Below are positions 24,265 through 27,957 of a DNA stretch of 35,164 bases, one piece after another (position 1 is the first letter of the stretch; each line of letters opens with the position of its first letter). A program made the position numbers and the translations under genes. The stretch is from Catenulispora sp. (GTDB lineage Bacteria; Actinomycetota; Actinomycetes; Streptomycetales; Catenulisporaceae), in NCBI GenBank assembly GCA_013361685.1, contig JABFXP010000874.1, positions 1 to 35,164 on the forward strand, read 5' to 3'. The notes under the pieces were generated by a model. That model did not search any database, was not told the DNA's origin, and saw only the letters and a program-made list of their open reading frames with translations.

Positions 24265-25140
24265 TCAGGGGAAGACGACCGTCCGCCTGCCGTTGAGCAG
24301 CACCCGGTGCTCCGCGTGCCACTTCACCGCGCGCGCCAGCACCTGGCACTCCACGTCGCGGCCGACGGCCACCAGCTGGTCCGGGGTGACGGCGTGGCCG
24401 ACCCGGGCCACTTCCTGCTCGATGATCGGGCCCTCGTCCAGGTCCGCGGTCACGTAGTGCGCGGTGGCGCCGATCAGCTTCACGCCGCGGGTGTGGGCCT
24501 GGTGGTAGGGCTTGGCGCCCTTGAAGCTCGGCAGGAAGGAGTGGTGGATGTTGATCATCCGGCCTTCCAGCGCCTTGCAGACCTCGTCGGTGAGGACCTG
24601 CATGTAGCGGGCCAGCACGACCAGTTCCACGTCGCGGGTCTGGACCAGCTCCAGCAGCGCCGCCTCGGCCTTCGCCTTGGCCTCGGCGTCCCCGGCGGCC
24701 ACCGGCAGGTGCACGAAGTCGACGCCGTAGGAGCGCGTCAGGTCCTCGAAGTCGCGGTGGTTGGACACCACGGCCGCGATCCGCACCGGCAGCGCCCCGG
24801 TGGAGGCGCGGAACAGCAGGTCGTTCAGGCAGTGGCCGAACTTGCTGACCATCAGCACGACCGGCATCCGCTCCTGGGCGTCGTGGAAGCGCCAGGTCAT
24901 CCGGAAGGTCGCGCCCACCGCCTGGAAGCTGCTGGTCAGCTGCTCCAGGGTGACTTCGTCGTGGACCCGGCTGAAGCTGACGCGCATGAAGAACAGACCG
25001 GTGTCGGGGTCGCCGTACTGCTGGCTGTCCAGGATGGTGCAGCCGGTCATGAGGAGGTAGTTCGCCACACCGTGGACGACGCCGGGCGTGTCCGGGCACG
25101 ACAGGGTGAGGACCCACTGCTGTTTCTTCTGCTCCGCCAT
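24265..25140 (-). CDS. purU: formyltetrahydrofolate deformylase
   Basis: A 291-residue cytoplasmic enzyme that hydrolyses 10-formyltetrahydrofolate to formate and tetrahydrofolate, balancing the one-carbon pool and supplying formate for PurT. An N-terminal ACT domain (about 8-90: WVLTLSCPDTPGVVHGVANYLL, FFMRVSF) is the methionine/glycine-sensing part of the family. The formyltransferase-fold catalytic domain (about 92-291) has VLMVSKFGHCLNDLL, VSNHRDFE, VVLARYMQVL, NIHHSFLPSFKGAKPYHQA with the catalytic Asn/His, and HYVTADLDEGPIIEQ with the catalytic Asp. Length and domains are standard. ATG 25140 is used; ATG 25149 (MAGMAEQ) is equally possible, as neither has a clear Shine-Dalgarno sequence. 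It appears to be transcribed alone. Confidence 0.95.
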   Translation of the reverse strand: MAEQKKQQWVLTLSCPDTPGVVHGVANYLLMTGCTILDSQQYGDPDTGLFFMRVSFSRVHDEVTLEQLTSSFQAVGATFRMTWRFHDAQERMPVVLMVSKFGHCLNDLLFRASTGALPVRIAAVVSNHRDFEDLTRSYGVDFVHLPVAAGDAEAKAKAEAALLELVQTRDVELVVLARYMQVLTDEVCKALEGRMINIHHSFLPSFKGAKPYHQAHTRGVKLIGATAHYVTADLDEGPIIEQEVARVGHAVTPDQLVAVGRDVECQVLARAVKWHAEHRVLLNGRRTVVFP

Positions 25141-25220
25141 GCCCGCCATTGTGGCTGATCGCGGGGCTTGGTCCCAGTAGCGTCCGGCTATCGACATCAT
25201 GCCGGGCCGGCGGCGGTGGG

Positions 25221-26402
25221 CTACCCGTCGATGACGTGCGGGACGAACCGCGCGTAGGTGTCGGTCACCAGGCCGTCGGACTCGCGGATGCCGAGCCCGG
25301 CGGGATTCCCGGCGACCAGCCAGGAGCCGAGGACGGCGCGGCCTCCCCCGTCCCGGCCCGGGAACGAGGGCAGCGGCGAGAACGCCTGGTAGACGTAGCC
25401 TTCCTCGCCGTATTCGCCGGGCTGCTCGAACCGCTCCCCGCCGGTGACGATCTGGATGGACGCGCCCTCCCGGCCCAGCAGCGGCTTGGCGACGTAGTCC
25501 GTCAGCTCGCGCGGGCCGTCGAGGTAGGCCGGCAGCAGGTTCGGGTGGCCCGGGAAGAGCTCCCAGAGCACCGCGAGCAGCGCCTTGTTCGACAGCAGCA
25601 TCTTCCAGATGGGCTCGATCCACTGGGTGCGGTCCAAGGTCTGGATGGCCGGCGGGCCGAAATCCTCGACGGTGAGCCATTCCCAGGGGTAGAGCTTGAA
25701 GACCGTCCGCATCCGGGTCTGGTCCAGGTCCACGAACCACTTCGCGGCCGCGTTCCAGCCGACCTGCTCGATGGGCAGCTGGATCGGGGTCAGGCCGGCC
25801 TGTTCGGCGGTCTCGGCGACGTAGGCGGAGGTCATGAAGTCCTCGCCGGTCTCGTCGGACTCGGCGTAGACGAAGTGCACCGGGCCGTGGGACAGCCGGA
25901 CCCGCATCCGCTGCCACGCCTCGACCAGCCGCTCGTGCAGCGAGTTCCACTGGTCCAGTTCCGGGTGGGTGTCCTGCAGCCAGTACCACTGGCAGATCGC
26001 GGACTCCAGCAGCATGGTCGGGGTGTCGGCGTTGTACTCCAGCAGTTTGGCGCCGCGGCCGTCGTCGCCGTCGTAGCGCAGGTCGAACCGGGAGTACAGG
26101 GTCGGCGGCTGCTGTGCCCAGGACTCGCGGACGGCCCGGATCACCGCCGGATCGGTGATACCCAGGTCGGCGAACCGGTCGTGGGCCACGATGTGCTCGG
26201 CCGCGGCCAGGCACATCACGTGCAGTTCCTCGGTGGTCTCCTCCAGGGCGTCGACCTCGGCCATGGTCAGCGCGTAGTACGCGGCCTCGTGCCAGTAGGG
26301 GACGACGCTGCCGTCGTCCAAGGTCGTGGTCGGGAAGACCAGCCCTTGTGATTCCACAGCTTTCTGCCAGCCGTCCCGGGGACGGCTCTGGAGTCTGCGC
26401 AT
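25221..26402 (-). CDS. glutathionylspermidine synthase family ATP-grasp ligase (YgiC-like)
   Basis: A 393-residue cytoplasmic amide-bond-forming ligase with a C-terminal ATP-grasp fold. Characteristic blocks are WHEAAYYALTMAEVDALEE near the N-terminus, SRFDLRYDGDDGRGAKLLEYNADTPTMLLESAICQW (substrate site), FKLYPWEWL, LLSNKALLAVLWELFPGHPNLLPAYLD, YVAKPLLGREGASIQIV (ATP-binding Lys and Gly loop) and the end GSWLVAGNPAGLGIRE. It matches the synthetase half of E. coli Gsp and the stand-alone YgiC/YjfC proteins (about 386 residues); the amidase half is absent. Actinomycetes generally make mycothiol rather than glutathione, so the substrate is probably not glutathione. Its ATG at 26402 shares one base with the stop of the preceding lipoprotein gene (TGATG), so the two are translationally coupled. 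Confidence 0.87.
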   Translation of the reverse strand: MRRLQSRPRDGWQKAVESQGLVFPTTTLDDGSVVPYWHEAAYYALTMAEVDALEETTEELHVMCLAAAEHIVAHDRFADLGITDPAVIRAVRESWAQQPPTLYSRFDLRYDGDDGRGAKLLEYNADTPTMLLESAICQWYWLQDTHPELDQWNSLHERLVEAWQRMRVRLSHGPVHFVYAESDETGEDFMTSAYVAETAEQAGLTPIQLPIEQVGWNAAAKWFVDLDQTRMRTVFKLYPWEWLTVEDFGPPAIQTLDRTQWIEPIWKMLLSNKALLAVLWELFPGHPNLLPAYLDGPRELTDYVAKPLLGREGASIQIVTGGERFEQPGEYGEEGYVYQAFSPLPSFPGRDGGGRAVLGSWLVAGNPAGLGIRESDGLVTDTYARFVPHVIDG

Positions 26403-26713
26403 CAGCCGCCGTGCCCGCCATGGCCGCCGTGGCCGCCGAACCCGCCGCGCACCACGCCGTGCTCCCCGGTCTCGCCGCCGCTGACCCGCGAGCCCATCTT
26501 GAAGCCGCTGCCGCCGCGGTACCAGTGCGCGTAGCTGGTGGTGGTGCTGGTGTCCTGGCAGTACTGGTCCGGGATCACCGTGTTGTCGCGGGTGTCGACG
26601 CACCGCTCGTGATCGTCGTGGCTGCACGACGTGACGCCCCACCCGATGACCGCGACGGACAACACCCCGCCGGCTAGAAGCTTGGCCCGATGCCGCTTCA
26701 TCTGGTCGCGCAT
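26402..26713 (-). CDS. small lipoprotein with Gly-His tail, coupled to the ATP-grasp ligase (YgiB-like position)
   Basis: A 103-residue putative lipoprotein. Basic KRHRAK, a hydrophobic segment (LLAGGVLSVAVIGWG) and the lipobox VTSC (Cys30) are followed by a short domain with two further cysteines (near 38 and 52), an acidic/polar HDDHERCVDTRDN stretch and WYRGGSGFKMGSR. The protein ends VVRGGFGGHGGHGGHGG: a Gly/His repeat that could bind metal and leaves a free Gly-Gly C-terminus. I recall that E. coli YgiB, the lipoprotein paired with YgiC, also carries an RGGFG motif and ends in Gly-Gly, but overall similarity is slight. ATG 26713 has GGGGAGGGG upstream; ATG 26701 is a weaker alternative. 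It overlaps the ATP-grasp gene by one base. Confidence 0.78.
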   Translation of the reverse strand: MRDQMKRHRAKLLAGGVLSVAVIGWGVTSCSHDDHERCVDTRDNTVIPDQYCQDTSTTTSYAHWYRGGSGFKMGSRVSGGETGEHGVVRGGFGGHGGHGGHGG

Positions 26714-26907
26714 AGCGCGCCCCTCCCCGTTTCCTCAAATTCCCCGACCTGCTTCCGCGTCGCAGATATGCAGGCTCTTCGAAGCGTACTCCTTTGGCGC
26801 AGCGTGGATCATCGGCCGAAACACTCCCGAATCGGACCGGTATCGGCCCGGAAATCTGCCTCGTCCATCGTGGAGACACGAAGCCGCCGACAGAAGGGAG
26901 AACCCCG

Positions 26908-27957
26908 ATGACGAGGAAGATCATCGTCGTCGGCTGGGGACCAGCCGCGCACCGCCTCGTCACCGGCCTGCTGTCCGACGACGCCGACGTCGCCGTGACC
27001 GTCTACGCCGGCGACGGCGCCGAGGCCCATGACCGCGACGCCCTGCCCGACACGCTTTCCGGCGGCCCGGCCGCGGCCGGCGCCGCGCTGCCCGCCGTGC
27101 ACGACCCGCGCCTGGACCTGCGCGTCGGCGTCCGCGTCACCGCGATCGACCGCATGCACCGCGTGGTCCACGGCACCGACCATCGGATCGGGCACTACGA
27201 CGCCCTGGTCCTGGCCACCGGCGCCAACCCGGTCCTGCCGCCGATCCGGGGCCTGCGCGCCGCCGACGGCGAGAGCCTGATGGCCGGCGTCCACCCCGCG
27301 CACTCCGCCGCCGACTTCCGCGCGCTGGCGCAGGCGGCCACGAAGGCGTCCCGCGCGGTGGTGATCGGCGGGAGCGCGATCGGGCTGCGTGTCGCGGCGG
27401 CCCTGCGCGCTGTGCGCACCGAGAGCCCGGAGCGCGCCCCGCTGCCCGTCGAACTCGTGGACCAGATGCCCGCGACCCCGGAGATAACTCCCGCCGACGC
27501 CTACTTCAGGCTGCGGCAGACCGGTGTGATCGCCTACCAGGACTGCCGCGTCCGCCGGCTCGAGGAAGGACCGGACGGCGCGCTCGCCGCGGTCACCCTC
27601 GCCGACGGCTACCGACTCACCACCGACCTCGCGGTGCTGACCTGCGGCACCGCCCCGAACGTCGCGCTGGCATGGACCGCCGGCCTGGCGGTGGCGCGCG
27701 GCGTGGTCGTCGACGACGCCCTGCGCTCGGTCTCCGATCCGGCGGTCTACGCCCTCGGCGGCTGCGCGGAGCACCGGCGCACGCTGTCCGGCCCCACCGA
27801 TGTGGCCCGGCTGCAGGCCGACGTCCTCGCCGACCGGCTGTCGGGCCGCGATGCGCTGCGGACCTACCGAGGGATACCGCCCACCCCCCGCCCCGCGCCG
27901 CGGATGAACACCGTGGTGGCCGAGGCGGAGCGGTTCCTGAAGGCTGCCGCGGCGTAA
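26908..27957 (+). CDS. NAD(P)/FAD-dependent oxidoreductase, NirB-like FAD domain
   Basis: A 349-residue flavoprotein of the pyridine-nucleotide-disulfide reductase fold. The N-terminal FAD site reads IIVVGWGPAAHRLVTGLL, with the trailing AHR recalling the GHR of assimilatory nitrite reductase NirB. Next come AIDRMHRVVHG, YDALVLATGANPVLPPIRG, then the NAD(P)-binding VVIGGSAIGLRVAAAL (about 151-166), and the second FAD motif VSDPAVYALGGCAEH. It lacks the redox CxxxxC of disulfide reductases and ends without a long dimerisation domain or the NirB siroheme/Fe-S parts, so it probably passes electrons to a separate partner or is a stand-alone reductase. The third glycine of the first GxGxxG is Ala. 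ATG 26908 has GGGAG 8 bases upstream. It is divergent from the lipoprotein/ATP-grasp pair and ends at a strong terminator. Confidence 0.85.
   Translation: MTRKIIVVGWGPAAHRLVTGLLSDDADVAVTVYAGDGAEAHDRDALPDTLSGGPAAAGAALPAVHDPRLDLRVGVRVTAIDRMHRVVHGTDHRIGHYDALVLATGANPVLPPIRGLRAADGESLMAGVHPAHSAADFRALAQAATKASRAVVIGGSAIGLRVAAALRAVRTESPERAPLPVELVDQMPATPEITPADAYFRLRQTGVIAYQDCRVRRLEEGPDGALAAVTLADGYRLTTDLAVLTCGTAPNVALAWTAGLAVARGVVVDDALRSVSDPAVYALGGCAEHRRTLSGPTDVARLQADVLADRLSGRDALRTYRGIPPTPRPAPRMNTVVAEAERFLKAAAA

What the first reader, a model, noticed from the sequence alone, without database searches (positions are those of the whole stretch)
25221..26713. YgiB/YgiC-like pair: an ATP-grasp amide ligase coupled to a lipoprotein ending in Gly-Gly
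The sequence shows a glutathionylspermidine-synthase-type ligase whose ATG shares one base with the stop of a small lipoprotein gene. The lipoprotein ends in a RGGFG motif and (GGH)n-GG. Characterised relatives join the carboxylate of a C-terminal glycine to an amine. Actinomycetes generally lack glutathione, so the real acceptor is open. My inference is that the lipoprotein's Gly-Gly end is the substrate, making this a peptide-modification system that adds a polyamine or other amine to a surface lipoprotein. As I recall, E. coli YgiB, partner of YgiC, also has RGGFG and ends in Gly-Gly, which would make this a distant version of the same design.
Basis: partly seen in the sequence, partly recalled or inferred. 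Interest (0 to 1): 0.72.

Follow-up and report, generated by a model that had tools for sequence, protein, structure and literature searches.

The report
Ligase paired with Gly/Ser-ended surface protein
Next to a gene for an enzyme related to ones that glue amines onto peptide ends, this soil bacterium carries a gene for a small membrane-anchored protein whose tail looks made for that enzyme; the same partnership recurs in other bacteria and in phages, so the enzyme's natural target can now be tested directly.

Summary
A 393-aa GSP_synth ATP-grasp ligase overlaps by one base the stop of a 103-aa lipoprotein gene ending RGGFG-GHGGHGGHGG. The nearest solved structures are E. coli YjfC and YgiC, which RefSeq names peptide--spermidine ligases. 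E. coli YgiB and YjfM carry the same kind of tail.

In 296 sampled genomes of the class, 61 have the ligase, 61 match the partner profile and 60 have both; the one ligase-only genome has a motif-bearing partner downstream. All 61 adjacent partners end in Gly (46) or Ser (15). Of 103 distinct tails, 81 end Gly-Gly (25 expected from shuffled tails), also where the ligase start is far away. Best explanation: the ligase amidates the partner's C-terminal carboxylate.

The end is Gly or Ser, not always Gly-Gly. A polyamine acceptor is unproven in actinomycetes: AdoMet decarboxylase occurs in 6 of 61 ligase-bearing genomes (6 of 235 others) and in 0 of 10 genomes of this genus. The actinobacterial partners tested match no named family. 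Phages carry the pair, and two enterobacterial phages carry a YgiB-like protein with no ligase within 1.5 kb. No modification has been shown.

The parts
26402..26713 (-). Small lipoprotein gene, 103 aa; predicted substrate of the ligase
   Evidence: matches in 7 of 10 genomes of the genus, one of them partial
26624..26713 (-). Signal peptide through lipobox cysteine (VTSC, Cys30)
   Evidence: sequence; position nearly invariant in a 24-row alignment of actinobacterial partners. Lipobox called by pattern, no signal-peptide program run
26435..26449 (-). RGGFG motif (residues 89-93)
   Evidence: G90 and G91 invariant, G93 nearly invariant in 24 rows
26405..26410 (-). C-terminal Gly-Gly (residues 102-103), predicted site of amide formation on the last carboxylate
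   Evidence: C-terminal residue Gly or Ser in 61 of 61 class-sample partners
26402..26404 (-). Stop TGA of the lipoprotein; its last base is the first base of the ligase ATG
25221..26402 (-). ATP-grasp ligase, 393 aa, YgiC/YjfC-like (GSP_synth PF03738)
   Evidence: E 3e-147; YgiC 7uk8 E 4.2e-84; YjfC 7uk6 TM 0.90/0.90
25284..26090 (-). Stretch of the ligase with the catalytic residues R105, D107, E122, N124, K273, K306, R373
   Evidence: each identical in 145 of 145 aligned actinobacterial ligases (some rows duplicate); their roles in Gss are recalled

Best explanation
A two-gene cassette for C-terminal modification of an exported, membrane-anchored protein. The cytosolic ATP-grasp ligase recognises the newly made partner, probably through the RGGFG motif, activates the carboxylate of its last Gly or Ser with ATP, and joins it to a small primary amine. 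The amide-capped protein is then exported and anchored by its N-terminal lipid (or, in some relatives, a transmembrane segment), so that its outer end carries an amine-derived, probably cationic, group. Shown by computation: the strict pairing, the Gly/Ser end, the conserved catalytic residues and the YgiC/YjfC fold. Inferred: that the partner is the substrate, that modification precedes export, that RGGFG is the recognition site. Open: the amine. It is reported as spermidine for the E. coli enzymes (paper title and RefSeq names only); for Catenulispora it is unknown.
For: Ligase family, fold and catalytic residues. E. coli relatives named peptide--spermidine ligases; title of Pederick 2023 in reference lists; a paper calls them 'peptidylpolyamine synthetases'. 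Coupling: ligase in 61 and partner profile in 61 of 296 class genomes, 60 shared; the same 7 of 10 genomes within the genus match both, 3 match neither. End under selection: 103 of 103 distinct tails end in G or S against a shuffled mean of 78 (maximum 94 in 10,000), GG 81 against 25 (maximum 44); not a ribosome-binding-site effect, as 18 of 22 tails that stop 20 nt or more before the ligase start still end GG. In 16 non-actinobacterial tails GG 12 against a shuffled mean of 1.5, maximum 6. Amine supply beside the pair: in phage Motura an annotated homospermidine synthase, a lipoprotein ending AGG and the ligase are consecutive genes.
Against: No modification has been observed. No ligase residue was found that follows the Gly/Ser difference once relatedness is allowed for, among those whose result I could see, as might be expected if the ligase reads the last residue closely. 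Three cases outside the class break the pattern: a Sphingomonas partner ends in Ala; an Azospirillum ligase (28% identical to YgiC) and the phage DSS3_VP1 ligase have no partner among the genes translated. Two enterobacterial phages have a partner-like protein with no ligase within 1.5 kb. A C-terminus must be made before it can be modified, so export has to be post-translational. The spermidine route is absent from most ligase-bearing actinomycetes.
Confidence: 0.72

Rival explanations
1. The lipoprotein is not the substrate but the ligase's membrane anchor, sensor or pseudo-substrate inhibitor; the ligase acts on other peptides, and the Gly/Ser tail is conserved only because it sits in the active site.
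For: Would also give strict co-occurrence and a conserved tail. DUF1190 sits in PspA/YjfL envelope-stress operons (PMC11237479, passages).
Against: The partner is predicted to end up outside the membrane, the ligase inside; the free C-terminal carboxylate of a small residue is what this enzyme family uses. A bare inhibitor would need no free C-terminus, yet the very last residue is the constrained one.
Confidence: 0.17
2. An ordinary glutathionylspermidine synthetase working on a small thiol peptide; the neighbour is unrelated.
For: Pfam name GSP_synth; structural similarity to Gss, TMq 0.84.
Against: NCBIfam Gss model 129 bits against a cut-off of 882; positions of Gss S335, S337, T441, T446 (glutathione site, recalled) are T, T, L, W here and similar in YgiC/YjfC; no amidase domain; actinomycetes use mycothiol rather than glutathione (established knowledge, not tested here); the neighbour is anything but random.
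Confidence: 0.04
3. The Gly-Gly ends are a by-product of Gly-rich tails or of the ligase's ribosome-binding site lying in the last codons; no functional end.
For: Tails are 41% Gly and 27% Ser; the genes overlap or are within 20 nt in 45 of 61.
Against: Shuffled tails, distant tails, partners separated from the ligase by a DUF350 gene, by other genes or lying downstream, and two enterobacterial phage partners with no ligase nearby keep the end.
Confidence: 0.03
4. The tail is a metal-binding or other structural element of the envelope; the ligase link is metabolic (polyamine and membrane stress) and not covalent.
For: DUF1190 is described as a metal-chelating lipoprotein in PMC11237479 (passage); the Catenulispora tail has GGH repeats.
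Against: His is 6% of tail residues overall, and the His-rich tail is confined to this genus and a near relative among the 24 rows aligned; does not explain the fixed last residue.
Confidence: 0.04

Closest known systems
E. coli YgiC/YgiB and YjfC/YjfM
   Same: Ligase fold and catalytic residues; gene order lipoprotein-ligase; RGGFG or RGGYG and a GG end.
   Different: Ligase about 41% identical to the E. coli YgiC copies; window lipoprotein is half the length and outside DUF1190; no DUF350 gene in 10 genomes of the genus; no AdoMet decarboxylase there.
E. coli Gss / trypanothione synthetase
   Same: GSP_synth ATP-grasp fold and catalytic residues.
   Different: No amidase domain; glutathione-site residues (recalled) replaced; far below the NCBIfam cut-off.
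PspA - YjfL - DUF1190 - ATP-grasp operons described in PMC11237479 (passages)
   Same: Lipoprotein plus GSP-like ligase; DUF350 lies beside the pair in the 4 actinobacterial loci tested and in Deinococcus.
   Different: In Catenulispora the pair stands alone; the passages seen do not name the lipoprotein tail as substrate.
Phage hss-gss cluster of PMC9992855 (passages)
   Same: The same Motura genes.
   Different: There read as a potential route to glutathionylhomospermidine; the passages found do not discuss the lipoprotein between them, which ends RGGFGSTGSSFSAGG.

Membership tests
YgiC/YjfC-type peptide--amine ligase | Full-length GSP_synth domain without amidase domain | tested here: met
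   profile 1-371/371 in a 393-aa protein, no other Pfam hit
YgiC/YjfC-type peptide--amine ligase | Catalytic residues conserved | tested here: met
   seven positions identical in 145 of 145 actinobacterial rows and in YgiC/YjfC (Gss numbering recalled)
YgiC/YjfC-type peptide--amine ligase | Nearest solved structures are YgiC/YjfC | tested here: met
YgiC/YjfC-type peptide--amine ligase | Adjacent exported protein with RGGFG-like motif and small C-terminal residue | tested here: met
YgiC/YjfC-type peptide--amine ligase | Ligates spermidine to a peptide carboxylate | not testable with these tools
   needs enzyme assay; spermidine supply in doubt
Glutathionylspermidine synthetase (Gss) | Glutathione-binding residues | tested here: not met
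   (site recalled)
Glutathionylspermidine synthetase (Gss) | NCBIfam equivalog cut-off | tested here: not met
   129.3 against 882 bits
DUF1190 (YgiB/YjfM) lipoprotein | Pfam PF06693 or NCBIfam model | tested here: not met
   no hit for the window protein; the other actinobacterial partners scanned (3; 5) have no hit or only hits below cut-offs
DUF1190 (YgiB/YjfM) lipoprotein | N-terminal lipobox and RGGFG...GG tail | tested here: met
DUF1190 (YgiB/YjfM) lipoprotein | Common descent of the body | tested here: inconclusive
   profile match covers 34 columns, signal/lipobox and the next cysteine only
Psp/Yjf envelope-stress operon | DUF350 (YjfL) present | tested here: not met
   0 of 10 genomes of the genus

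The most novel reading that the evidence does not exclude
In most actinomycetes the amine is not a polyamine at all. An ATP-grasp ligase caps the outer end of a membrane-anchored protein with another cytosolic amine (for example a mycothiol precursor such as GlcN-Ins, or the free amine of diaminopimelate in a wall precursor, which would tie the protein to the wall). That would be a C-terminal protein modification that I know of from no other system, and phages that carry a YgiB-like protein without an adjacent ligase would be borrowing the host's enzyme for it.
Probability: 0.2. Interest if true: 0.88.

Novelty: new variant of a known kind. Interest (0 to 1): 0.62.

Why it matters
The E. coli enzymes have a reported activity (title seen) but, in the text I could search, no named natural protein substrate. 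The co-occurrence and the Gly/Ser end single out one candidate that a mass-spectrometry experiment can test at once in E. coli. If right, bacteria and their phages use a dedicated C-terminal amidation of surface proteins. The missing spermidine route in most ligase-bearing actinomycetes makes the identity of the attached amine a real open question.

Tried and rejected
Glutathionylspermidine synthetase: rejected. Gly-rich composition or ribosome-binding site as the cause of the Gly-Gly end: rejected. A ligase residue that reads Gly versus Ser: the 20 best column associations were listed uncorrected; twelve positions were then tested with independent pairs on a FastTree tree, and of those whose result I could see none supported it (385, 390, 327, 337, 304 flat; 192 same way 4.2, other way 0.6 of 10, median p 0.219). 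The output was cut, so the other positions tested there were not seen. Body homology of the actinobacterial partner with DUF1190: not shown. AF2 of the lipoprotein: mean pLDDT 61, not used for a fold search. Modelling the tail in the active site was not possible: the tool folds one chain. No named-family hit for the partner.

Data dropped or set aside: of 149 loci, five had no tail by the rule (L063, L071, L078, L079, L152). L071's partner was seen; L063's lies downstream; L078 and L079 hold ligase remnants; L152 is cut by the contig end. L090 and L095 were dropped as duplicates. In one search L063 and L071 were added by hand after looking. Of 16 plasmid and phage loci fetched, chosen by eye from the listings, 14 gave a tail and two (L179, L189) none. 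A1, used, was built partly from the same genomes, so its sensitivity there is favoured; its silence in 234 of 235 ligase-free genomes is not. Fisher tests are not corrected for relatedness.

Papers: Pederick 2023 (only its title, in reference lists), Iyer 2009 (only its title, in a reference list) and Pai 2006 (nothing; recalled) are not held, so I cannot say whether they already propose YgiB/YjfM as substrate. Searches whose listings, and the passages I opened from them, showed no such statement.

Full report
What is there. On the minus strand a 103-aa gene (26402-26713) with a lipobox-like signal and the end RGGFG-GHGGHGGHGG is followed, with one shared base, by a 393-aa ATP-grasp ligase (25221-26402). 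The ligase fills Pfam GSP_synth (E 3e-147). Its AF2 model (mean pLDDT 90.8) is nearest to E. coli YjfC 7uk6 (TM 0.90/0.90) and YgiC 7uk8 (0.86/0.88), then Gss. The window genome is G000; G005 of the same genus has a 16,837-base contig that fits a Catenulispora MAG contig of that length, so the genus is Catenulispora by inference.

Is the pairing real. In 296 genomes drawn evenly from the class, 61 have the ligase and 61 match a profile of the actinobacterial partner; 60 are the same genomes (Fisher 1e-60, not corrected for relatedness). The ligase-only genome, G213, has a lipobox protein ending TGGFG...SVGG downstream of the ligase; the partner-only one, G232, is a weak match (E 5.9e-6) that stops before the tail. 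The profile was built partly from these genomes, so its sensitivity is favoured, but its silence in 234 of 235 ligase-free genomes is not. Within the genus, the same 7 of 10 genomes have ligase and partner matches and 3 have neither (one of the 3 is 77% complete). In two of the seven the ligase is a remnant (G004 lacks the middle, G008 keeps only the end), and in G008 the partner match stops before the tail. As an in-locus control, the motif ORF is upstream of the ligase in 106 of 115 loci and downstream in 2.

Is the end itself under selection. Partners were chosen by the RGGFG-like motif, not by their last residue. In the class sample all 61 have a partner whose tail ends in Gly (46) or Ser (15), 43 of them Gly-Gly (two rows added by hand). 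Over 142 loci and 103 distinct tails, 83 end in Gly, 20 in Ser, none otherwise; Gly-Gly 81 against a mean of 25.2 and a maximum of 44 in 10,000 within-tail shuffles; Gly or Ser 103 against 78.0, maximum 94. A ribosome-binding site in the last codons cannot be the cause: 18 of 22 tails that stop 20 nt or more before the ligase start end Gly-Gly, 20 of 22 in Gly. In 16 non-actinobacterial tails chosen by eye, 14 end in Gly, 12 in Gly-Gly against a shuffled mean of 1.5; the other two end in Ala (Sphingomonas plasmid) and Ser (Trichormus). On the ligase tree Gly and Ser exchange at least 13 times, and no ligase position whose result I could see follows the change, so the ligase probably takes either.

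What the ligase is likely to do. Seven catalytic positions of Gss (numbering recalled) are identical in 145 of 145 actinobacterial rows, while the positions I recall as glutathione-binding are replaced much as in YgiC and YjfC. RefSeq names YgiC and YjfC peptide--spermidine ligases; Pederick 2023 (title only) reports that activity; PMC12568646 calls them peptidylpolyamine synthetases (passage). YgiB and YjfM carry the same kind of tail. The simplest reading is that the ligase amidates the partner's own C-terminus. The ligase shows no hydrophobic N-terminus by eye, so it should act in the cytosol before export; short exported proteins can be exported after synthesis (established knowledge). The partner need not be a lipoprotein: in some Nocardia- and Nonomuraea-type loci no lipobox was found by my pattern, and where printed a hydrophobic segment precedes the conserved part.

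Which amine. In the class, AdoMet decarboxylase was found in 12 of 296 genomes, 6 of 61 with the ligase and 6 of 235 without (p 0.02, an enrichment that speaks mildly for polyamines). Carboxynorspermidine decarboxylase passed its cut-off in 0 of 296 (21 had weaker matches); a homospermidine-synthase query matched 8 of 296, none with the ligase. In the genus AdoMet decarboxylase is 0 of 10, while 8 of 10 have one partial Spermine_synth match over the Pfam cut-off (28 to 39 bits against 22.9). Streptomyces coelicolor has been reported to hold low amounts of several polyamines, and Mycolicibacterium smegmatis none detectable (passages of PMC9397018 and PMC8503589). So uptake, a diamine or another amine are all possible.

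The partner family. The window protein and the other actinobacterial partners scanned match no Pfam or NCBIfam model at cut-off, while YgiB, YjfM and two of three phage partners scanned pass for DUF1190 (Motura's falls just short, 20.9 against 22 bits). Profile comparison joins the two groups only over the signal and the next cysteine. A DUF350 (YjfL) gene lies beside the pair in the four actinobacterial loci tested and in Deinococcus but nowhere in 10 genomes of this genus: the Catenulispora cassette is the barest form.

Phages. YgiC-like ligases are found in 136 of 50,697 records of the phage collection, a few of them bacterial contigs. Of six phage loci first opened, five have the partner within about 1.2 kb upstream; in DSS3_VP1 the two genes translated upstream are not partners, and the genes at its other end were listed but not translated. 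LAh_8, opened later, has the pair, its partner ending in Ser. In Motura an annotated homospermidine synthase, partner and ligase are consecutive. Cronobacter phage CR3 and Citrobacter phage Moon carry YgiB-like proteins ending FGG with no annotated ligase within 1.5 kb; Cronobacter and Citrobacter are not among the ten names shown in the ligase tally, which leaves two more unnamed.

Verdict. A new variant of a known kind: strong comparative evidence that a YgiC-type ligase and a Gly/Ser-ended membrane-anchored protein form one system, with the covalent step and the amine still to be shown. The association of DUF1190 with such ligases is already in print (PMC11237479, passages).

Noticed in passing
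L178:803-3628: Achromobacter phage Motura: annotated homospermidine synthase, lipoprotein ending RGGFGSTGSSFSAGG and ligase are consecutive genes: amine maker, candidate substrate and ligase in a row.
   Followed up: partly
L198:1441-2055; L199:1453-2031: YgiB-like proteins of Cronobacter phage CR3 and Citrobacter phage Moon end FGG with no annotated ligase within 1.5 kb; they may use the host's ligase.
   Followed up: partly
L078 (G004) and L079 (G008): Ligase remnants in the genus: G004 matches only profile 1-65 and 283-371 beside an intact partner; G008 keeps only 317-371 and a partner match that stops before its tail. Assembly error not excluded.
   Followed up: no
L036, L119, L121, L140: Micromonospora-type partners have a tail that is not Gly-rich (RGGFGTHLASCGG), yet end Gly-Gly.
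   Followed up: no
L186:2127-2504: Sphingomonas plasmid partner has RGGFG but ends SIHA, the only Ala end seen.
   Followed up: no
L064, L061, L072, L158: DUF350 (YjfL-like) membrane protein beside the pair, in L064 between partner and ligase, in L158 on the other strand.
   Followed up: partly
window 24265-25152, minus: Formyltetrahydrofolate deformylase (PurU) lies about 70 bases after the ligase on the same strand; the same neighbour is seen in L081. No functional link is suggested.
   Followed up: no
window 26794-27957, plus: Divergent FAD-dependent NAD(P) oxidoreductase-like ORF (NirB/NorW-type matches below cut-off).
   Followed up: no
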